Shown in pieces: positions 2,903 to 64,000 of a stretch of 64,000 nucleotides of DNA. Origin of the DNA: Cytophagales bacterium (GTDB taxonomy: Bacteria > Bacteroidota > Bacteroidia > Cytophagales > Cyclobacteriaceae). Every line of letters begins with the position of its first letter. The stretch's first letter is position 1. Below the pieces are notes generated by a model. It made no database searches and was not told where the DNA came from. It was given only the letters and a program-made list of their open reading frames with translations. Position numbers and translations under genes: made by a program. The DNA lies in assembly GCA_017303805.1 (NCBI GenBank), contig JAFLBQ010000003.1, forward strand, positions 296,821 through 360,820, written 5' to 3'.

Positions 2903-4160
2903 CGTTAACTTTTCCTTTGAATAATTGAACAACCAGCAGGCCCACCGCTACGGCTGCCACAATCACTACCACCATCGGGTTACCGGAACCCAGATTAAAT
3001 GCACTTACAATTGCTTTGTCCACATTGTTTAAACCGATAAACAACGTGAGGGCAAAAATCAATAGCAGCACCCCGTTATACCATTTCTTGTGTTGATGTT
3101 GCACCGCTACAAGGTGCGCATCGTTCACCAACAAAATCAAAAACCAGGTTAGCAGCGGAAGCACAAGTCCGTTTAATGCTTGTGCCGTTAGAATAACGGG
3201 TATTGGTTTTACATTGCTAATGCCAAAACAAAAGCCGGTTAGTAATACCAGTGCCCACACCAGCCGCGTACTGCGTTTACTTTCGGCACCTAATACATTG
3301 TTAGCAATAAGCGAGGCGGCATATGGAGCTGTAAGCGTTGAAGAAAATCCTGCGGCAAACAAACCGGCACCTAATACCCAATTGCCCCACACTCCTAAAT
3401 CCGCTTGTAGTTTTTCTGCGAACAATCCAAACGATGTAAACCCGCCTGCATGTGCACCGGCCAAAAGAATGCACGCAGTAACCAAACCACCCACCAAAAC
3501 GGAAATAGTTAACCCGATTCGCATAAGCGGAATGGTAGTACCCTTGCTGATGGCAGACCCGATAAAAATATTGTAAGGCACAATGGTGGTGCCCACCAAG
3601 GCTAACGCAATCCACTCGCTACCGGCAGGCAATGCCGGAATAAGCGCGTGTTGAAACAGCGCGCCTGTGGTAAACTCTGCACGCCAGGCCAACACACCGA
3701 ACGAAGCAGCCATAATTGCCACCAAAGCCATCATGATAGCAGAAATAAACTTGCTGCCACCTGCCCATAGTATGCAGCCGGCACTAATTGTAATAGCGAT
3801 AGTAAACCAGCGCCCATCGCCCGGCAGCAATAAGCTTAAGCCCGAAACTGCACCCAGAATATTTCCTGCCTCGTATGCCGCGCAGCCCAGCAAAACCGGA
3901 AATGCCACCAACCATTTAAGCCAGCGTAGTTTAAATTTTTTCTCGATGCACTGGCCAAACGTTAACCCGCTGCTGATTATTACCCGAGCCGAAACTTCCT
4001 GCAATACAATGCATGCAAGTGTTGCAAATACAACTGCCCACAGTAACCGCAATTGAAACCCGGCACCGGCTGTTAAAGCCGTGGTAATGGTGCCCGGCCC
4101 GATAAACGCTGCCGAAATGATTGACCATAACACTACACTTTTAATTCTGTCGAGTTTCAT
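2895..4160 (-). CDS. Nramp-family divalent metal transporter homologue, atypical metal site
   Basis: A 421-residue, highly hydrophobic protein with about 11 membrane helices and the Nramp (SLC11) layout. In canonical members helix 1 carries DPGN and helix 6 carries MPHN, which coordinate Mn2+/Fe2+. Here the matching motifs read GPGT (residues 21-24) and VPYN (194-197), so the helix-1 Asp and Asn and the helix-6 Met and His are all changed. It is therefore an Nramp-fold protein whose substrate cannot be assumed to be Mn2+. The open frame extends to a TTG at 4190, but ATG 4160 starts just before helix 1 and is preferred. It is divergent from the DoxX gene. Confidence 0.85.
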   Translation of the reverse strand: MKLDRIKSVVLWSIISAAFIGPGTITTALTAGAGFQLRLLWAVVFATLACIVLQEVSARVIISSGLTFGQCIEKKFKLRWLKWLVAFPVLLGCAAYEAGNILGAVSGLSLLLPGDGRWFTIAITISAGCILWAGGSKFISAIMMALVAIMAASFGVLAWRAEFTTGALFQHALIPALPAGSEWIALALVGTTIVPYNIFIGSAISKGTTIPLMRIGLTISVLVGGLVTACILLAGAHAGGFTSFGLFAEKLQADLGVWGNWVLGAGLFAAGFSSTLTAPYAASLIANNVLGAESKRSTRLVWALVLLTGFCFGISNVKPIPVILTAQALNGLVLPLLTWFLILLVNDAHLVAVQHQHKKWYNGVLLLIFALTLFIGLNNVDKAIVSAFNLGSGNPMVVVIVAAVAVGLLVVQLFKGKVNVN

Positions 4161-4899: not shown

Positions 4900-6315
4900 A
4901 TGAAAAGAAAAATAGTAAGTGGTAAAGACCTGATTAAATTAAGTTACCCAGAAGGAAAAGCAATCGGTACTGCTATTAATACCATATTGAAATACTTTCG
5001 CAGAAGCGAGAAAGAAGAAATATACGATGCGTTAAAAGCTGTGTTGGCTAACCCCAAAGCTTTTGTGCAAGATTCTATCTGGAGCAAAACAGCATTGGCA
5101 CTTGCACCTTCTGAAAAAAAATCGTTGGTGCATGAGTTGTTGAAAAACAGAATCGACTATCAGATTTACGGAGGTGCTGAAATTGAAGAAGGTGCGCGTA
5201 ACCAAATGGAAATTGCCATGAAGTTACCCATTACGGTGGCCGGAGCTTTAATGCCCGATGCGCACCAGGGTTATGGTTTACCAATTGGTGGTGTGTTGGC
5301 TACGCATAATGCAGTTATACCATATGGTGTTGGGGTGGATATAGGCTGCCGGATGTGCTTAACCGCATACCCGCTCGATGAAAAGTTTTTAACCAGACAT
5401 CAGGCCAACCTGAATCAAATACTGGTGGACACAACCTGTTTTGGCAGGGCCGTATTTAAACGACCGAAAGGGCATGAAGTGCTTGACCGGACTTTGTTTA
5501 ATGAAATAACTCTGCTGAAAAATTTACAAGGCAGAGCCGCCATGCAGATTGGATCATCAGGAAGTGGAAATCATTTTGTTGAATTTGGGTTGCTTGAATT
5601 GCCGGAACGTAACGAATGGAAGCTGGCAAGTGGCAACTATGTAGCGGTGCTTTCACATTCAGGTTCGCGTGGGTTAGGCGCAGAAATAGCAAGGCACTAT
5701 ACGCGCGTGGCAAAAGAAACTTGTCACTTACCTGGCGAAGCAGCTAACCTGGCGTGGCTCGATTTAAACACGGAAGCCGGACAGGAATATTGGCTTGCCA
5801 TGAATTTAGCAGGTGACTATGCTTCGGCTAATCACCATCAGATTCATGAACGAATTGCGGCAGCGTTAGGTGAGCAACCGCTGTTACAAGTTGAGAACCA
5901 CCACAACTTTGCGTGGAAGGAAACGCTTGGTGAAGGCACCGAAGTAATTGTGCATCGCAAAGGCGCTACACCGGCTGGTGAAGGGGCGCTGGGAATTATT
6001 CCAGGCTCCATGACTTCGCCCGGGTATATCGTGAAGGGCAAAGGCAATGCTGCCTCTATCAACTCTGCCTCGCACGGGGCGGGCAGGGTAATGTCGCGGA
6101 GTGCCGCAAAGAATACCATCACCAAAAAAATGCTGAAGCAGGAATTGCTAAAGCATGAAGTGGAATTGATTGGCGGTGGTCTGGACGAGGCGCCTATGGT
6201 TTACAAAGACATCCGGAAAGTAATGCACTACCAGGTTGAACTTGTAGAAGTGCTCGGAACGTTTACCCCGAAGATTGTAAGAATGTGTGGCGATGATTCG
6301 CCCGCTGAAGATTAA
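4900..6315 (+). CDS. rtcB: RNA-splicing ligase RtcB
   Basis: RtcB joins RNA 2',3'-cyclic phosphate or 3'-phosphate ends to 5'-OH ends using GTP and Mn2+. The 471-residue protein shows the family signatures in order: PDAHQGYGLPIGG, GVGVDIGCRM (metal ligands Asp and Cys), SGNHFVEFG, LSHSGSRGLG, ENHHNFAW and the SHGAGRVMSR motif containing the His that takes GMP. Length is that of bacterial RtcB proteins. The frame is open back to 4858, but ATG 4900 gives the usual N-terminus. Neither rtcA nor an archease gene is adjacent. A degenerate heptad repeat lies between its stop and the next gene. Confidence 0.95.
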   Translation: MKRKIVSGKDLIKLSYPEGKAIGTAINTILKYFRRSEKEEIYDALKAVLANPKAFVQDSIWSKTALALAPSEKKSLVHELLKNRIDYQIYGGAEIEEGARNQMEIAMKLPITVAGALMPDAHQGYGLPIGGVLATHNAVIPYGVGVDIGCRMCLTAYPLDEKFLTRHQANLNQILVDTTCFGRAVFKRPKGHEVLDRTLFNEITLLKNLQGRAAMQIGSSGSGNHFVEFGLLELPERNEWKLASGNYVAVLSHSGSRGLGAEIARHYTRVAKETCHLPGEAANLAWLDLNTEAGQEYWLAMNLAGDYASANHHQIHERIAAALGEQPLLQVENHHNFAWKETLGEGTEVIVHRKGATPAGEGALGIIPGSMTSPGYIVKGKGNAASINSASHGAGRVMSRSAAKNTITKKMLKQELLKHEVELIGGGLDEAPMVYKDIRKVMHYQVELVEVLGTFTPKIVRMCGDDSPAED

Positions 6316-6373
6316 AAAGCAGAAAGCAATAAAGCGTTAAGCTTCCTGCTTTCCGCTTTAAACACTTTACGCT
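6316..6373 (+). repeat. Degenerate heptanucleotide array with inverted halves
   Basis: Between rtcB and the TPR gene the sequence falls into 7-base units with GC at positions 4-5: AAAGCAG, AAAGCAA, (T), AAAGCGT, TAAGCTT, CCTGCTT, TCCGCTT, then two weaker units. The first half carries AAAGC and the second GCTT, so the array turns into its reverse complement around AAGCTT. No coding sense. It resembles the other heptad arrays at 17368, 19145 and 52550 in period but not in sequence. Confidence 0.5.
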
Positions 6374-6383
6374 TTTTAAAATT

Positions 6384-15624: not shown

Positions 15625-18600
15625 TTAGTTAGCAGTAATCTTCAACTTTATTGTGTACTCGTCCATTTCCACCTGTGTGGAGTCAGCAACCGCTTCTTTT
15701 AGCTCCAACGAAAGTGCTTGCGTTTCGGTGCGGATGTAGTCCTGATGTTCGGCCAGGGCAGCCGATACAACCTCACCGTTTTTCTCTACCTCAATCAAAA
15801 TCTTATCCAATACTTCCAGGCCCATGTCTTTACGCAGGTTCTGCACGCGGTTTACAAAATCGCGGGCAATACCCTCGCGTTTAAGCACATCCGTTACGGT
15901 AATATCCAGTGCTACGGTTAATCCGCTTTCAGAAGCTACAGCCCATCCGGCAATATCTTCCGAACTAATCAGCACCTCATCCAGCGTTAGGTTAAATCCA
16001 TCTTTCGTTAACGCGCCTGTCTTTTCTATAGTTTGTATTTCCGCTTGTGTAAACGTATTAATCACAGCCGAAACTTCTTTCATTTTGGGGCCGTATTGCT
16101 TACCCAATTTTGCAAAATTGGGTTTTACCTTTTTTACCAACAGGCCAGAGGCATCGTCCACATACTGAATTTCCTTTACGTTAACTTCTGTTTTTATAAT
16201 GGCCTCCACGGTGCGTACCCGCTGCGCAAATTTTTCGTCAACTACCGGAAGCAGTATTTTTTGCAACGGAGTGCGCACTTTTACTTTATTGTTTTTGCGA
16301 ATGGAGTGTACCAACGAGCAAATACGTTGGGCATAGTCCATCGACATTTCCAGTTCTTTGTCCTTTCTGTTTCCTTCCGGTTTTGTTAATAAGGTATGAT
16401 GAACAGACTCATACCGCAATGGGGTATTGAATTGCTTTGCGCGACTGCGAATGTTATCGGAAAGGTTTTTATACAACCACTCGCTAAAGAATGGCGCAAT
16501 GGGCGCCATCAATTGTGCCGTTACCATTAAACACTCATACAACGTTTCGTAGGCGGCCTTCTTGTCGTTCGAAAGTTCACCGCGGCTGGCCGGTTGCCAG
16601 AAACGCTTTCGGTTTAAGCGCACATACCAGTTTGAAATCTGGTCGTTTACGAATTCCTGAATGGCGCGGGCCGCTTTGGTAGGTTCGTAATCGGCATAGG
16701 CTGCTATTACTTCCTCAATTAACGATTGCTCTTTGGCAATGATCCATTTATCCAACGGAGCCAGATCAGCAAACGGCACATTGTTCATCTCATCTTTTAC
16801 AAACCCATCGATGTTGGCATACAACACAAAGAAAGAGTACGTGTTGATGAGGGTACCGAAGAACCTGCGTTGGGTTTCTTCCACTCCGGAAAAGTCAAAC
16901 TTGAGGTTGTCCCACGGTGGTGCGTTCTCCATCATATACCAGCGCACTACATCGGGGCCGTATTTGGCAAGAGCATCGAATGGGTTTACCACATTGCCTT
17001 TGCTCTTGCTCATTTTGTTCCCATTCTTATCCAACACCAGGCCGTTGGAGATTACATTTTTAAATGAAACTCCGCCATTGCCTACTTTTTTGTTAACGGC
17101 TTTGATCTCGTCACTGCTTTCGCTTAGCATAACCGCTATCGCGTGAAGTGTAAAGAACCAGCCCCGGGTTTGATCTACACCCTCCGCAATAAAATCGGCC
17201 GGATAACTTTTCTCAAAGATGTCTTTATTCTCAAATGGGAAATGCCATTGTGCATACGGCATAGCACCACTATCAAACCATACATCAATCAGGTCGGCTT
17301 CGCGGTACATCGGTTCGCCTTTGCTGCTTACCAAAATAATCTCATCTACGTACGGGCGGTGCAAATCGAATTCAGAATTTAGAATTTCGAATTTAGAATT
17401 TTGGATTCCGGATTGCTTAGCGCGTGCAATCTCCGCTTGCAGTTGCTCAATCGAACCAATGCAAATTTCTTCTTTACCATCTTTGGTGCGCCAGATCGGT
17501 AGTGGAGTTCCCCAATAGCGCGAACGCGACAAGTTCCAATCCACCAAATTCTCCAACCAGTTTCCAAAGCGACCGGTTCCGGTGCTTTCGGGTTTCCAGT
17601 TAATGGTTTTGTTCAACGCAACCATTTTATCTTTCAACGCTGTGGTGCGAATAAACCAGCTATCCAATGGATAATACAGCACGGGCTTGTCGGTACGCCA
17701 GCAATGCGGGTAAGTGTGTTCGTACTTCTCTACTTTAAAAGCTTTGTTTTCTTCTTTTAAGATAATGGAGATGATGACATCGGTATTTTTATAATCCGCG
17801 TGGCTCTCATCCTCGTTGGTGTAATTCTTTACGTAAAAATCATCTGCGCCAAGCGGCTTGTGCGTTTTAATGTTGTACCTGGCCACACCGGCTTCTAAGC
17901 CTTCACCAATCTGATTAATGAATTTTCCTTTGCGATCAACGGTTGGTACTTCATTGCCGCCCTCATCTTTAATAGTAAGCGCGGGCACACCATTTTGTTT
18001 CGCGGCCCGAAAGTCATCGGCACCAAACGTAGGTGAGATGTGTACCACACCGGTACCATCTTCGGTAGTCACAAAATCTCCGGCAATTACCTGAAACGCG
18101 TTATCAGCATCGTAAAACGGTTGAATGTAGGGCATCAGTTGCTCGTAGCGCACACCGAGCAGTTGCTTACCGGTAAACTCCTGCACCACCTCGAAGGGGA
18201 TTGCTTTATCGCCAGCTTTGTAAGCCTCCAGCTTCAGGTCTTTATTTTTATCAGAAAAATATTTGCTGAAAAGATCTTTGGCCAACACTACACTAACCGG
18301 TTTGTGTGTGTAGGGATTAAATGTATTAACCTGAACATACTTAATCTTCTCGCCTACTGCCAGGGCCGTGTTCGAGGGAAGTGTCCACGGTGTGGTGGTC
18401 CAAGCGAGGATAAAAGTTTCGCGATCTGCTTTGAGTAAAAATTCCGACTTCGCATCACGCTTCACTTTGAATTGCGCAACAATGGTCGTGTCTTTTACAT
18501 CTTTGTAGGTACCCGGCAAATTCAACTCGTGCGAACTTAAGCCAGTACCTGCCGCTGGCGAATACGGTTGAATGGTGTAGCCTTTGTACAATAACTGTTT

Positions 18601-19107
18601 ATCATACAATTGCTTTAAAATCCACCAAAGTGATTCGATGTATTCTTTCTCGTACGTGATGTATGGTTTTTCCAGGTCAACCCAATAGCCCATTTTGGTG
18701 GTCAGGTCATCCCATTGATCCTTATACTTCATTACCGTTTCGCGGCACTTCTTATTGTACTCTTCAATGGAAATCTTCTTACCAATATCGTCTTTGGTAA
18801 TGCCCAGTTCCTTTTCTACCTGTAACTCTACCGGCAAACCGTGGGTATCCCATCCGCCTTTGCGTTTTACCTGGTAACCTTGTAATGTTTTAAACCGGCA
18901 GAAAATATCCTTTACAGTACGGGCCATTACGTGGTGAATGCCGGGGGTACCGTTGGCCGATGGCGGCCCTTCATAAAAAGTAAATGTATCGGCACCTTCG
19001 CGCACGCTTACCGACTTCTCAAAAATTTTCTCTTTTTTCCAGAATTCGAGTATTTCGGTGGCCACCTGGGCCAGATTCAAGTCTTTTATTTCTCTGTATT
19101 TACTCAC
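15625..19107 (-). CDS. ileS: Isoleucyl-tRNA synthetase
   Basis: Class I synthetase charging tRNA-Ile. The 1160-residue protein has the HIGH-type motif in NGTPGIHHVMART, the editing (CP1) domain with TWTTPWTLPSNTAL, the WFDSGAMPYAQWHFP segment, the KMSKSKGNVVNPFDAL motif and the anticodon-binding domain. The long form without a C-terminal zinc motif fits the type shared by Bacteroidota and eukaryotic cytosol. A loop just before FDLHRPYVDEIIL is encoded by a 49-base heptad repeat (17368-17416), giving low-complexity NSKFEILNSEF. Transcribed with lspA. Confidence 0.96.
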   Translation of the reverse strand: MSKYREIKDLNLAQVATEILEFWKKEKIFEKSVSVREGADTFTFYEGPPSANGTPGIHHVMARTVKDIFCRFKTLQGYQVKRKGGWDTHGLPVELQVEKELGITKDDIGKKISIEEYNKKCRETVMKYKDQWDDLTTKMGYWVDLEKPYITYEKEYIESLWWILKQLYDKQLLYKGYTIQPYSPAAGTGLSSHELNLPGTYKDVKDTTIVAQFKVKRDAKSEFLLKADRETFILAWTTTPWTLPSNTALAVGEKIKYVQVNTFNPYTHKPVSVVLAKDLFSKYFSDKNKDLKLEAYKAGDKAIPFEVVQEFTGKQLLGVRYEQLMPYIQPFYDADNAFQVIAGDFVTTEDGTGVVHISPTFGADDFRAAKQNGVPALTIKDEGGNEVPTVDRKGKFINQIGEGLEAGVARYNIKTHKPLGADDFYVKNYTNEDESHADYKNTDVIISIILKEENKAFKVEKYEHTYPHCWRTDKPVLYYPLDSWFIRTTALKDKMVALNKTINWKPESTGTGRFGNWLENLVDWNLSRSRYWGTPLPIWRTKDGKEEICIGSIEQLQAEIARAKQSGIQNSKFEILNSEFDLHRPYVDEIILVSSKGEPMYREADLIDVWFDSGAMPYAQWHFPFENKDIFEKSYPADFIAEGVDQTRGWFFTLHAIAVMLSESSDEIKAVNKKVGNGGVSFKNVISNGLVLDKNGNKMSKSKGNVVNPFDALAKYGPDVVRWYMMENAPPWDNLKFDFSGVEETQRRFFGTLINTYSFFVLYANIDGFVKDEMNNVPFADLAPLDKWIIAKEQSLIEEVIAAYADYEPTKAARAIQEFVNDQISNWYVRLNRKRFWQPASRGELSNDKKAAYETLYECLMVTAQLMAPIAPFFSEWLYKNLSDNIRSRAKQFNTPLRYESVHHTLLTKPEGNRKDKELEMSMDYAQRICSLVHSIRKNNKVKVRTPLQKILLPVVDEKFAQRVRTVEAIIKTEVNVKEIQYVDDASGLLVKKVKPNFAKLGKQYGPKMKEVSAVINTFTQAEIQTIEKTGALTKDGFNLTLDEVLISSEDIAGWAVASESGLTVALDITVTDVLKREGIARDFVNRVQNLRKDMGLEVLDKILIEVEKNGEVVSAALAEHQDYIRTETQALSLELKEAVADSTQVEMDEYTIKLKITAN
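17368..17416 (-). repeat. Seven-unit heptanucleotide array inside ileS
   Basis: On the plus strand: GAATTCA, GAATTTA, GAATTTC, GAATTTA, GAATTTT, GGATTCC, GGATTGC, seven exact 7-base steps with consensus GAATTNN. It is translated in frame as a loop of ileS (NSKFEILNSEF region). Three heptads equal seven codons, so multiples of three units preserve the frame. Confidence 0.8.
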
Positions 19108-19144: not shown

Positions 19145-19209
19145 GGGGATTGGGAAGAAGGGAATTGGGCATTGGGAAATAGGTATTAGGCATTTGGGAA
19201 TTGAGGTTT
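19145..19209. repeat. Degenerate heptanucleotide array between ileS and the Uma2 gene
   Basis: Units GGGGATT, GGGAAGA, (A) GGGAATT, GGGCATT, GGGAAAT, AGGTATT, AGGCATT, (T) GGGAATT, GAGGTTT. The period is 7 with two one-base slips. It lies in the intergenic space where the divergent ileS and Uma2 transcripts start. Confidence 0.7.
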
Positions 19210-19234
19210 GGATGAGCTGTGTTAACTTTAATGT

Positions 19235-19855
19235 ATGAAAGCAGAGGAGCCGGATTTGACTTTATCGTACACGTATGCCGACTACCTGAAATGGGATTTG
19301 CCGCAAATGGTAGAATTGATACGAGGTAAGGTTTATAAAATGTCGCCAGCACCTACTTCCAGGCATCAAAGAATTTCCGGTAATTTATTCGGCTTCATCA
19401 AATATTTTCTGAGGAAGAAAAAATGCGAAGTATTCTCAGCCCCTTTTGATGTTCGTCTTCCCCGAAAGAGCAAAGCCAATGAAGATATAATTACCGTAGT
19501 ACAGCCCGACATCTGTGTGATTTGCGACCCAACCAAAATTGATACACGTGGTTGCTTAGGTGCTCCAGATTGGGTAATTGAAATTCTTTCGAAGCATACT
19601 TCAGCTAAAGACCTGAACGAAAAATTTGAAGTTTACGAAGAAGCCGGAGTAAAAGAATATTGGGTGGTGCATCCCGGAGAGCAAACTGTGCTGGTTTATA
19701 CTTTGAATGATGGTGGAACGTACGAAGGTATTTTAAAACCTTATGTTCGTACCGATAAAGTACAACCTAAAACCTTGCCCGGACTAACCATTGACCTTAC
19801 AGAAATTTTTGAACTTCCGGAGCCAGAAGATGAAAGCAATTACGTGCGGCTTTAA
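19235..19855 (+). CDS. Uma2-family (DUF820) nuclease-fold protein
   Basis: A 206-residue protein of the Uma2 family, PD-(D/E)xK nuclease fold. Typical marks are LIRGKVYKMSPAPTSRHQRI near the N-terminus, VVQPDICVICDP with the first acidic residue and GAPDWVIEILS with the second, then the EKFEVYEEAGVKEYWVV motif. The family is abundant in cyanobacteria and also in Cytophagales; nuclease activity is inferred from fold, biological role is unknown and it may be mobile. It starts 25 bases after a heptad array and is convergent with the RND gene. Confidence 0.88.
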   Translation: MKAEEPDLTLSYTYADYLKWDLPQMVELIRGKVYKMSPAPTSRHQRISGNLFGFIKYFLRKKKCEVFSAPFDVRLPRKSKANEDIITVVQPDICVICDPTKIDTRGCLGAPDWVIEILSKHTSAKDLNEKFEVYEEAGVKEYWVVHPGEQTVLVYTLNDGGTYEGILKPYVRTDKVQPKTLPGLTIDLTEIFELPEPEDESNYVRL

Positions 19856-51506: not shown

Positions 51507-52544
51507 TTATACCTCCGGCTCTTGCTGGCTCAGGCAATGGAACGACCCCAAGCCCCAGATAATGTCTGTAGAATCGATTCCTATTACCCTTCGGTCTCTA
51601 AAGCAAGACTGTAGAATGTCAAGAGCACGGTCATCATACTTATCGCGGAAAGTAGGAACTACTACATACTTATTGGCAATGTAAAAGTTTGCGTACGAGG
51701 CCGGCAAGCGCTGGTCTTCATAGATTACCGGTGCCGGCATAGGCAATTCCACAATGTTCATCTGCTTTCCATTCTCCAACCGAAGTTTGGTTAACGCGTT
51801 CAGGTTGTCTTGCAGAATTTCGTAGTTCGCATCGGTTTTGTTTTCCTCTACAATAGTTACTACGGTGTCTTCATTCACAAACCGGGTAAGGTCATCGATG
51901 TGGCCATCGGTATCATCGCCAATAATACCATCGCCTAACCACAGAATGTGGTCCACGCCATAATAATCGATCAGGTATTTTTCAATTTGTTCTTGGTTAA
52001 GATGCGGGTTACGATTCTCATTCAGCAAACAGGCCCGCGTAGTTAACAACGTGCCCTTTCCATTAAATTCCACCGAGCCGCCTTCCATTACAATGCCCGG
52101 CTCTACTACCGGAATGTGGTACTGGTTAGCAATCAAAGTGGGGATTACATCATCTAAATCAAACGGTGGATACTTACCACCCCAGGCATTGTAGCCCCAA
52201 TCTACAATCATTTTCTTTTTCTCTTTGGGGTTGATTAAAAACGCTGGGCCATGATCGCGGCACCACGCATCGTTGGTAGGATGTATAAAGAATTGAACGC
52301 TTTTTAAGTCCGCACCAGCTTCGTTCAGGTGGCCTGTAGCCTTTTTAATCATCGCATCGTTTGCCACGTTAATGTTTACCCGTTCTCCTTCGGCCACGCG
52401 CTTGATAAACTCTGCATAGCGCGGATAAATAGTTTCAATTTTACCGGGCCACGATGCTTCTTTATGCGGCCAGCTTAACCATGTTGCCGTGTGTTTGGCA
52501 AATTCGGCCGGGAAGTGAAATCCGAGTTGTTTGGGTGTTTTCAT
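51507..52544 (-). CDS. aguA: Agmatine deiminase
   Basis: Hydrolyses agmatine to N-carbamoylputrescine and ammonia, step one of the two-step route to putrescine. The 345-residue pentein-fold protein has TNDAWCRDHGP with the substrate-binding Asp, WGYNAWGGKYPPFDLDD, VMEGGSVEFNGKG with the catalytic Glu, DDTDGHIDD with the catalytic His, and the nucleophile Cys in GLGSFHCLSQQEP. Note GLGS instead of the more usual GGGN before the Cys. The next gene upstream is the amidase of step two, across a heptad-repeat spacer. Confidence 0.93.
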   Translation of the reverse strand: MKTPKQLGFHFPAEFAKHTATWLSWPHKEASWPGKIETIYPRYAEFIKRVAEGERVNINVANDAMIKKATGHLNEAGADLKSVQFFIHPTNDAWCRDHGPAFLINPKEKKKMIVDWGYNAWGGKYPPFDLDDVIPTLIANQYHIPVVEPGIVMEGGSVEFNGKGTLLTTRACLLNENRNPHLNQEQIEKYLIDYYGVDHILWLGDGIIGDDTDGHIDDLTRFVNEDTVVTIVEENKTDANYEILQDNLNALTKLRLENGKQMNIVELPMPAPVIYEDQRLPASYANFYIANKYVVVPTFRDKYDDRALDILQSCFRDRRVIGIDSTDIIWGLGSFHCLSQQEPEV

Positions 52545-52549
52545 TTTTA

Positions 52550-52628
52550 GTCTTAAGTCGTTAGGCCATAGTCCATAGACTTTAGTTTCTGCTTAACTAA
52601 AGTCTATAGACTCAATACTATGGACTAT
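52550..52628. repeat. Inverted heptanucleotide array filling the aguA-aguB spacer
   Basis: The whole spacer is built of 7-base units: GTCTTAA, GTCGTTA, GGCCATA, GTCCATA, GACTTTA, GTTTCTG, then the complement units TAAAGTC, TATAGAC, TCAATAC, TATGGAC. Arms 52568-52587 and 52595-52628 pair perfectly around the 7-base loop TCTGCTT, apart from a 14-base (two-unit) insertion in the right arm. The transcript would form a long hairpin between the genes. Confidence 0.8.
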
Positions 52629-62400: not shown

Positions 62401-64000
62401 TTGAAGCTCGGTGTTGCTAAAGCCAGATCAGTACAAGGGTTAATCCTTACGGGGTTAGTTTCCCTCTTTTGCCTTTTGGCCAGCCAAACCCTTGCACAGG
62501 ATAAACGGCCCATCAATAACAAATCCACCATTCGGCAAACCAAAGCCAAGTCGGTTAAGCACAAGGAAAAAGCAACCACCAAAGATTTAGCGGGCTATAA
62601 ACTTCGCACAGCCAATCAATCCACAGCCAAACGAGCCGTGCATTCTTCTACCTCGCCCTACAAAGCCACGCGCAGGGCTGGCGATCAGGCCGGTAAACCT
62701 ATTGGCGGCCGGCCGGCCGGCATTCGTTCGCGCACAGCCGAAGCCGGACGCGCCAACATCTATCCGCAAAAAGGTCCGTTTGTCAATCATAATTCAAAAT
62801 CGCCCGAGCGCGCCTATAATAACCGGCAACAACTTTCGCGCTTGGCGCGATTGCAGACCCGGCACGATCCACCCGGTAGTAAAAAACGCATAACCCCCCG
62901 GTCTAATTCGCAAGCGTACGTTACCCGCGGAAGAAAAAATGTGTATTGGGGAAAGTACTCTAAAGGCGAGCGGGCTTTTACTACCGATCTGGCCGGCAGA
63001 CCGCTGCGCACTAAAAACTTCAGAACTCCGGCCAACCCGCTTATGAAAGCCGGAAATCCTTACTATGGCCGCAAAGACCGGGGCGACAGGGCCTATAAGG
63101 GCACATTCCGGTCAGGCTATGCTACAGCCAGCAAGCGGGGTGAGCAAGCCTGGCGGGGCGATATTTCGGGGCAACCCATACGCAGAAGTGCGGGCCGGCC
63201 TAACCAGGTTGCCGGGCAACGGGGCGATAGCCCACGGATAAAGCCGGGCTTTAGCGCGCGCTTACTCAAGAAAGATGTTGGCCGGATAAGCGGCATAAAA
63301 TCCAAAAAAGGTGGGGGCTCGGTAACCGGCTTGTTTCAGTCAAACAAACCACTGCCGCCACGGCAACCGGGCGATGGTGGTCAATTTATGAAGCGCGACT
63401 TTGCCCGCTTAAAAGGTATAAAACCTCAGAAAGGGGGCGGTTCGGTAACCGGGAAAATTCAATCCAACACGCCCTTGCCTCCGCGCCAGCCCGGCAGTGG
63501 TGCCAATTATATGAAGCGCGACTTTGCCCGCCTTAAGGGAATTAAACCCAACAAAGGCGGAGGTTCTGTTACTGGCAAGTACAATTCTAATCAACCGCTT
63601 ACACCGCGTGCACCCGGTGTGGGTGCTAATTTTATCCGCAGAGATTTAAATCGCCTGCAAGGTGTAAAGCCTGTGAAAGGCGGTGGTAGTATCAGTGGCT
63701 TGCGCAGAAACAATAACAATATGCCTATAGCTGTCCGGCAGCCGGTAGATCAACGCGCAGCACGCTTTCAGGTTAACTATAAAGGCTTCATTCCTCAAAA
63801 CAGAGCCAGCAGAAATTTTAGTCAGGAAGGGCTGAGCTACACTGGCAACATCAAATCTGCACGCCCTCAAAAGGGTGGCGGCAGTGTAAGCGGTACGCTA
63901 TGGAATAATAAAGGGCAGCCCTTGCCTCCCAAATATTCTGCCGGTGCGCCCGCAAAATTTCAAGGCAATCTGCAACAAGGGCCCAAGCAATTAAGCCGCT
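62401..64000 (+). CDS. Large secreted basic repeat protein (3' end outside window)
   Basis: An open frame of 533 codons continues past the window end. The TTG start at 62401 is followed by a signal peptide (GLILTGLVSLFCLLASQTLAQ); the in-frame stop upstream at 62380 leaves no ATG. The mature protein is highly basic and glycine-rich. From residue about 280 it consists of units of about 43 residues with the core KGGGSVTG or KGGGSVSG, then PLPPRQPG and FARLKGIKP; earlier parts have weaker Y/W-x-G-x units. No known domain recognised. Promoter and function are unclear; likely a surface or cell-envelope protein. Confidence 0.75.
   Translation, partial: MKLGVAKARSVQGLILTGLVSLFCLLASQTLAQDKRPINNKSTIRQTKAKSVKHKEKATTKDLAGYKLRTANQSTAKRAVHSSTSPYKATRRAGDQAGKPIGGRPAGIRSRTAEAGRANIYPQKGPFVNHNSKSPERAYNNRQQLSRLARLQTRHDPPGSKKRITPRSNSQAYVTRGRKNVYWGKYSKGERAFTTDLAGRPLRTKNFRTPANPLMKAGNPYYGRKDRGDRAYKGTFRSGYATASKRGEQAWRGDISGQPIRRSAGRPNQVAGQRGDSPRIKPGFSARLLKKDVGRISGIKSKKGGGSVTGLFQSNKPLPPRQPGDGGQFMKRDFARLKGIKPQKGGGSVTGKIQSNTPLPPRQPGSGANYMKRDFARLKGIKPNKGGGSVTGKYNSNQPLTPRAPGVGANFIRRDLNRLQGVKPVKGGGSISGLRRNNNNMPIAVRQPVDQRAARFQVNYKGFIPQNRASRNFSQEGLSYTGNIKSARPQKGGGSVSGTLWNNKGQPLPPKYSAGAPAKFQGNLQQGPKQLSR

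What the first reader, a model, noticed from the sequence alone, without database searches (positions are those of the whole stretch)
17368..17416. A seven-unit, 7-base repeat translated in frame inside isoleucyl-tRNA synthetase
Seven exact 7-base steps (GAATTNN) encode the loop NSKFEILNSEF in ileS. An essential synthetase carrying what looks like an inserted short-period array is unusual. With the arrays at 6316, 19145 and 52550 it suggests a family of 7-base-period sequences spreading through this genome, each with its own motif. The period resembles the heptanucleotide repeats (STRR) of cyanobacteria, but the degeneracy and motif variety differ.
Basis: partly seen in the sequence, partly recalled or inferred. 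Interest (0 to 1): 0.75.

Follow-up and report, generated by a model that had tools for sequence, protein, structure and literature searches.

The report
Seven-base repeats overwriting a synthetase loop
A run of repeated seven-letter DNA words sits inside an essential bacterial gene, and in related bacteria the same spot holds other seven-letter words, in several cases words that are scattered through that bacterium's own genome, which suggests that such repeats are copied from place to place and not only grown on the spot.

Summary
The array is real: seven 7-base steps at 17368-17416 (five GAATT, two GGATT), in frame in ileS, far above simulations and synonymous recodings. In a 464-kb sample of this genome 10 of 11 period-7 arrays are in spacers; the eleventh is this one. 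In relatives the same IleRS loop carries at least six heptad motifs without detectable phylogenetic signal, and 43 of 60 tree rows have none. In the 11 closest pairs the loop is kept (6) or wholly replaced (5). In 16 genomes the loop's motif was among the motifs most abundant elsewhere in the same genome for classes B-E (best of 3360 arrangements); a pre-stated replication agreed for three of six genomes, three of 60 arrangements being as good. For the window's own genome the motif is too common to be informative. Best reading: a permissive coding site overwritten by dispersed, partly genome-specific heptad repeats; the copying step is inferred. The kind is known (heptanucleotide repeats, Xanthomonas GGGAATC); motif replacement inside an essential gene and genome 'dialects' look new.

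The parts
17368..17416 (-). seven-step 7-base array read in frame as the IleRS loop before DLHRP
15625..19107 (-). ileS, isoleucyl-tRNA synthetase, 1160 aa
   Evidence: Pfam tRNA-synt_1, Anticodon_1
19160..19210 (.). spacer array of GGGNATT type directly upstream of ileS, one orientation only, no hairpin
   Evidence: z +1.45
52538..52628 (.). two arms of 7-base repeats (TAGTCNN type) in opposite orientation, hairpin
   Evidence: z -3.6
6312..6379 (.). spacer hairpin with weak 7-base arms (AAAGCNN type)
   Evidence: z -4.8; period-7 score 11 is within the range of simulations

Best explanation
The loop before DLHRP in IleRS is a permissive coding site that has repeatedly been overwritten, in frame, by arrays of a dispersed family of degenerate 7-base repeats. 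The family lives mainly in spacers, part of it as two arms in opposite orientation that form a hairpin. Genomes differ in which heptad motifs they hold, and the motif in the IleRS loop tends to be one that is dispersed in the same genome. Mechanism, inferred: stretches are copied between sites at the DNA level (template switching or ectopic conversion during repair or replication), then lengthened, shortened and worn by slippage and point mutation; arrays survive only where sequence is free, that is in spacers and in tolerant loops read without a stop. Some loop alleles then pass between species by ordinary short-tract recombination. Shown: excess, spacer bias, motif replacement, and the motif match for part of the genomes. 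Not shown: the copying act, any protein that does it, any use to the cell.
For: Spacer-biased period-7 excess: 10 spacer and 1 coding array in 464 kb, simulations 0.06 and 0. At least six motif classes at one loop, 10 changes on the tree against 10.6 for shuffled labels. Of the 11 closest pairs, loop kept in 6 (0.88-1.00) and replaced in 5 (0.19-0.26; four events, since two pairs share L040), flanks 0.83-0.95; sharp edges in L012/L040 and L050/L058. Loop class against dispersed hits in 16 genomes: ranks 1 (tied), 1, 1, 3, 1 (tied) for B, C, D, D, E; 1 of 3360 arrangements as good; 6 of 200000 random placements. Replication: rank 1 for L043, L045 (C) and L050 (D). Fast change of motif set: G010 and G011, ileS 0.89 alike, have D 17 and 0, B 2 and 26. 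Similarity between dispersed copies is almost confined to the arrays.
Against: Replication failed for class B (L033 rank 4, L059 rank 3 of 13) and was weak for L040 (rank 4); 3 of 60 arrangements are as good as the true one. In L043 the reversed control pattern scored 31 against 35. In the own genome, G008 and G017 the loop motif ranks 9, 8 and 5 of 16. Relatedness is not corrected for: sisters L050 and L058 are both rich in D. Hits overlap, so counts are not numbers of sites. In L004/L033 the replaced block begins about 30 codons before DLHRP and includes sequence that is no array, which points to exchange of whole loop alleles. At lower identity loops of intermediate likeness exist (0.57, L007/L033).
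Confidence: 0.5

Rival explanations
1. Local slippage only: each array grows by 7-base slippage from a chance seed on the spot, as proposed for heptamers in print, and the loop merely tolerates it.
For: Same-site length change with the same motif, 83 against 33 bases in G012/G023; polymerase-slippage proposal for heptamers (PMC4692102, PMC4679880); loop varies in length and sequence in general.
Against: Does not predict one motif at many sites of a genome and none in near relatives (class D: 4 of 16 and 3 of 13 genomes have any hit), inverted pairs, or wholesale change of motif at a fixed place.
Confidence: 0.22
2. Allele exchange: old, divergent loop alleles are shuffled between species by homologous recombination in ileS; the repeats are passengers and the match with the genome's motifs is chance or shared descent.
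For: L033 and L059 have identical loops while the genes are 0.87 alike; L004 and L033 are 0.93-1.00 alike around different loops. Two alternating loop types (GI.N and GLM) recur on the tree.
Against: L030 and L045 share a motif (loop 0.88) without raised likeness of the flanks; the motif match.
Confidence: 0.18
3. Selected elements: heptads are binding sites or terminator hairpins under selection, and the IleRS copy also acts at RNA or DNA level.
For: 14 of 44 stretches fold better than shuffles at z below -2; paired sites fold strongly, z -4.5 to -9.5; many arrays lie close to gene ends.
Against: 30 of 44 do not; 10 of 15 dispersed sites with strict chains have one orientation only; motifs replace one another; 43 of 60 IleRS rows have no array.
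Confidence: 0.1

Closest known systems
Heptameric GGGAATC / (GGGANTN)n repeats of Xanthomonas (PMC4692102; passages and sections 10 and 16 read)
   Same: 7-base degenerate units, dispersed on both strands, 89-93% intergenic, often as inverted pairs (70 and 75 cases), changing between close relatives.
   Different: One G-rich motif there; here many motifs, differing by genome, and replacement of one motif by another inside an essential gene.
TAACTGA repeats of Beggiatoaceae, Cyanobacteria and five Bacteroidetes (PMC4679880; passages and sections 3 and 12 read)
   Same: Heptamer direct repeats, mostly intergenic, present in Bacteroidetes; one pair lies in a purC gene; other heptamers are mentioned in the same spacers.
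   Different: One fixed heptamer, mostly just upstream of start codons; here degenerate units and many motifs.
Cyanobacterial STRR heptamers, including copies in RNase P RNA genes (recalled; only a reference title seen; paper not held)
   Same: 7-base repeats placed inside a functional gene.
   Different: Other phylum, fixed motifs; not compared by sequence here.
Rickettsia palindromic elements (recalled; only search listings seen)
   Same: Hairpin-forming repeats found in frame in protein genes.
   Different: A family with conserved sequence, as recalled; here only the period and a varying motif are shared.

Membership tests
heptanucleotide simple-sequence repeats of bacteria | period of 7 over several units | tested here: met
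heptanucleotide simple-sequence repeats of bacteria | dispersed, mainly intergenic | tested here: met
   10 of 11 arrays in a 464-kb sample
heptanucleotide simple-sequence repeats of bacteria | near-exact copies of one unit | tested here: not met
   units of the window array differ at two or more positions; the same holds for many arrays, though some relatives have exact arrays
GGGAATC type of Xanthomonas | inverted pairs of arrays close together | tested here: inconclusive
   5 of 15 dispersed sites with strict chains; 2 of 4 window arrays by folding; not the 19160 array
GGGAATC type of Xanthomonas | G-rich unit able to form quadruplexes | tested here: not met
   GAATTNN, TAGTCNN, CAATTGA, ATCCAGN units; GGGNATT at 19160 is the nearest
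cyanobacterial STRR | cyanobacterial host and STRR units | tested here: not met
   relatives are Cytophagales (record titles); STRR units recalled, not compared
MITE or other mobile element | conserved ends or flanks shared by copies | tested here: not met
   20 sites compared: likeness lies in the arrays, some alignments run on by up to about 25 bases, one 21-base match lies outside
MITE or other mobile element | target-site duplication | not tested
   no empty sites were aligned
conserved IleRS sequence feature | loop conserved in other IleRS | tested here: not met

The most novel reading that the evidence does not exclude
Each of these genomes runs its own 'dialect' of 7-base words that is actively copied to new sites by a DNA-level process with a fixed 7-base register, so that even an essential gene's loop is rewritten in the local dialect when a lineage changes its words: a dispersal mechanism for sequence that belongs to no known class of mobile element.
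Probability: 0.3. Interest if true: 0.85.

Novelty: new variant of a known kind. Interest (0 to 1): 0.6.

Why it matters
Why 7-base repeats are over-represented in bacteria is open; in the papers seen here the proposals are polymerase slippage and a speculative effect on polymerase choice. A coding site that is rewritten between sister species, with fixed flanks and a reading frame, records single replacement events cleanly, and motif sets that change within about 10% divergence can separate local growth from copying between sites.

Tried and rejected
Conserved IleRS motif: rejected. Protein-level repeat: rejected by synonymous recoding. Mobile element with conserved ends: not seen. Two free positions per unit as a general rule: mismatches in the two most variable columns 0.63 against 0.55 expected over 32 arrays, 5 of 32 at P<0.05, combined P 0.07; not established. 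A general hairpin role: 14 of 44 stretches at z below -2, the window's ileS and 19160 arrays being counted twice in that set. Synteny of G000 (264 kb) and G008 (280 kb): 7 blocks, 30 kb, too broken for a site-by-site comparison. Three closer pairs gave few arrays: one kept identical (G002/G032), one changed in length (G012/G023), others seen in one genome only. AlphaFold model (mean pLDDT 73.7, pTM 0.57, 25 sequences): poor in parts of the catalytic core, about 54 at residues 571-580; weak support for a loop. GAATTNN x4 in 58 relatives: 53 have a match, controls are mostly lower but equal or higher in some (G050 134/138, G025 3/14, G027 4/13, G013 5/8, G016 2/5). GAATTNN x5 over the phylum: 99 of 198 have a match, controls mostly lower, not in all (G230 17/15, G061 10/14). 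The reversed control is not free of heptads: for class B it has 12 hits in G000 against 0, for class C 75 in L066 against 0. Other families (351 kb): 19 period-7 arrays, one of them an N-filled locus (L198) that adds one to every period, and 10 from one genome (L184); the remaining 8 do not exceed period 6 (10, 9 without the N locus), so an excess in other families rests on L184 and. Far relatives around ileS: 3 period-7 arrays in 40 loci, no more than other periods. Rows dropped: tree of 60 of 111 aligned sequences, identical ones and most far relatives left out; L060, L061, L062, L064 left out.

Full report
What is there. 17368-17416 consists of seven steps of seven bases, five beginning GAATT and two GGATT. 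It is read on the minus strand as part of IQNSKFEILNSEF in a 1160-residue isoleucyl-tRNA synthetase. Scored by matches at distance seven (+1/-1) it reaches 26; the best of 30 first-order simulations of the window is 13. No other period from 4 to 15 reaches 26 in the window; the same array gives 19 at period 14. The genome holds one further stretch like it at E up to 0.001, a spacer array on another contig, 88% alike over 40 bases.

It is a DNA repeat. Synonymous recoding of 16 residues reached the observed score in 12 of 20000 trials; elsewhere in this ileS the best period-7 score is 6. In the ileS genes of 110 loci (duplicates of species included), arrays at score 12 or more number 18 in this loop and 1 elsewhere at period 7; periods 5, 6, 8, 9, 10, 11 and 13 give none in the loop and 0 to 3 elsewhere.

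Genome context. I took 20 stretches of 20 kb plus the window, 464 kb in all; a simple gene caller made for this puts 91.7% in genes. At score 13 or more there are 10 period-7 arrays in spacers and 1 in a gene, the one in ileS; other periods up to 21 give 0 or 1 in spacers, except 14 (3) and 21 (4), multiples of 7. Second-order simulations gave on average 0.06 in spacer DNA (100 runs, at most 1) and none in coding DNA (10 runs); the chance of so few in genes is about 1.6e-10. Around ileS in 36 near relatives there are 19 period-7 arrays, other periods 0 to 2 apart from 14 (7); in 40 far relatives 3, no more than other periods. Samples from other families are mixed and rest on one rich genome, L184. 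100 kb of E. coli K-12 has none at score 11. The spacer just upstream of ileS shows the same habit: AATNCCC-type arrays in L033, L034, L057, L059, L069, ATTGTCC-type in L043 and L045, TTCGTAN-type in L047 and L063.

The same loop in relatives. The loop before DLHRP holds AATTC-type arrays in the window's genome, L004, L006, L065 and L055; ATGGTCN in L033, L059, L015; CAATTGA in L030, L043, L045, L040; ATCCAGN in L009, L050, L020; CATCTCA in L014; GTCNACA in L058; classes were assigned by eye at score 10 or more. The other 43 of 60 tree rows score lower, some of them (L005, L010, L011, L105) looking like worn forms. On a tree built without the loop the class changes at least 10 times among the 17 array-bearing rows; shuffled labels give 10.6 on average and 122 of 300 shuffles give 10 or fewer. 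The tree is a quick one with 13 of 57 inner branches open.

Replacement, not slow drift, in close pairs. Of the 11 pairs with overall nucleotide identity of at least 0.885, six have loops 0.88-1.00 alike and five 0.19-0.26, the level of unrelated loops (median 0.29); two of the five share L040, so they are four events. In L012/L040 and L050/L058 identity is 0.88-1.00 from 120 to 22 codons before DLHRP, 0.19 in the loop, and then 0.70 and 0.87 over the next 20 codons and 0.92 and 0.95 after that. In L004/L033 the flanks are 0.93-1.00, but the replaced block begins about 30 codons before DLHRP and is not all array. L015/L049 differs: L049 has a long insertion that is no repeat. Part of the change is plain exchange: L033 and L059 have identical loops though the genes are 0.87 alike. 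In pairs further apart loops of intermediate likeness occur.

Whose motif lands in the loop. I searched 16 genomes of the genus for the loop classes as dispersed patterns. B: G024, loop B, 28 hits; G011 26; others 0 to 5. C: G026, loop C, 41; next G033 19. D: G019 and G030, loop D, 23 and 14; G010 17; G033, loop like worn D, 3; the other twelve 0. E: G034, loop E, 24; G024 22; G008 16 in one array; others 0 to 10. A is common in nearly all. Without the loop's own hits the loop-bearing genomes rank 1 (tied), 1, 1, 3 and 1 (tied) for B, C, D, D, E, and 9, 8 and 5 for A; only the true one of 3360 label arrangements reaches its score. I then wrote predictions down and searched 13 further genomes. 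C was highest in L043 and L045, 35 each, with a reversed control of 31 in L043; D was highest in L050, 36, with its sister L058 at 25; B was low in L033 and L059 (4 and 5, two of each the loop itself) and highest in L049 (15); L040 had 8 for C, rank 4. 3 of 60 arrangements are as good as the true one. Relatedness is not corrected for.

Anatomy of dispersed copies. Of twenty sites of classes C, D and B from G026, G019 and G024, most lie between or at the ends of open frames. Likeness between copies lies in the arrays, running on by up to about 25 bases in some and with one 21-base match elsewhere. Under a strict unit definition 15 sites have chains; 5 have two arms in opposite orientation within 100 bases and fold strongly (z -4.5 to -9.5), 10 have one orientation, 5 of the 20 sites had no strict chain. 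In the window 52538-52628 and 6312-6379 are hairpins, 19160-19210 is not.

Mechanism. Seven-base slippage accounts for length change and wear and is the proposal in print for heptamers. It does not by itself account for one motif at many sites of a genome with none in a near relative, for inverted pairs, or for a change of motif in a fixed place. Copying between sites does, with selection against arrays in most coding sequence. That step is inferred; nothing here shows what carries it out.

Known and new. The kind is known: degenerate, dispersed, often inverted heptamers in Xanthomonas, TAACTGA in some Bacteroidetes, heptamer-derived satellites (passages of PMC6749651). Paper searches that turned up no account of motif replacement in a coding loop, or of many-motif heptads in Bacteroidota, are; the library lacks most subscription journals, and Mrazek 2007 was not held.

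Noticed in passing
L105, ileS residues near 214 of the window's numbering (locus 3642-3667): A second in-frame 7-base array in IleRS of one relative (FKLIQDSKFKTLF), in another loop that varies between relatives.
   Followed up: partly
L049 and L072-L076, L108, IleRS loop: Long insertions that are no 7-base repeats in the same IleRS loop, so the site takes insertions in general.
   Followed up: no
L184 (G037:C1:1-20000): One 20-kb stretch of another family with 10 period-7 arrays at score 13 or more, of several motifs.
   Followed up: no
L263 354-638 (G024:C46): A 285-base spacer block in which several different heptad motifs follow one another end to end.
   Followed up: no
G012:C105:12220-12302 and G023:C1 near 1966163: Same spacer, same motif, 83 against 33 bases in two genomes about 94% alike.
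   Followed up: partly
window 19235-19855: A Uma2-family putative restriction endonuclease gene directly beside the 19160 array.
   Followed up: no
window 63382-63608: A tandem repeat of period 123, 1.9 copies.
   Followed up: no
window 6312-6379 against G008 C24 (script strand): At about the same distance from ileS, G008 has a spacer array of another motif (AAATCNN-like); that the sites correspond was inferred from the offset only.
   Followed up: no
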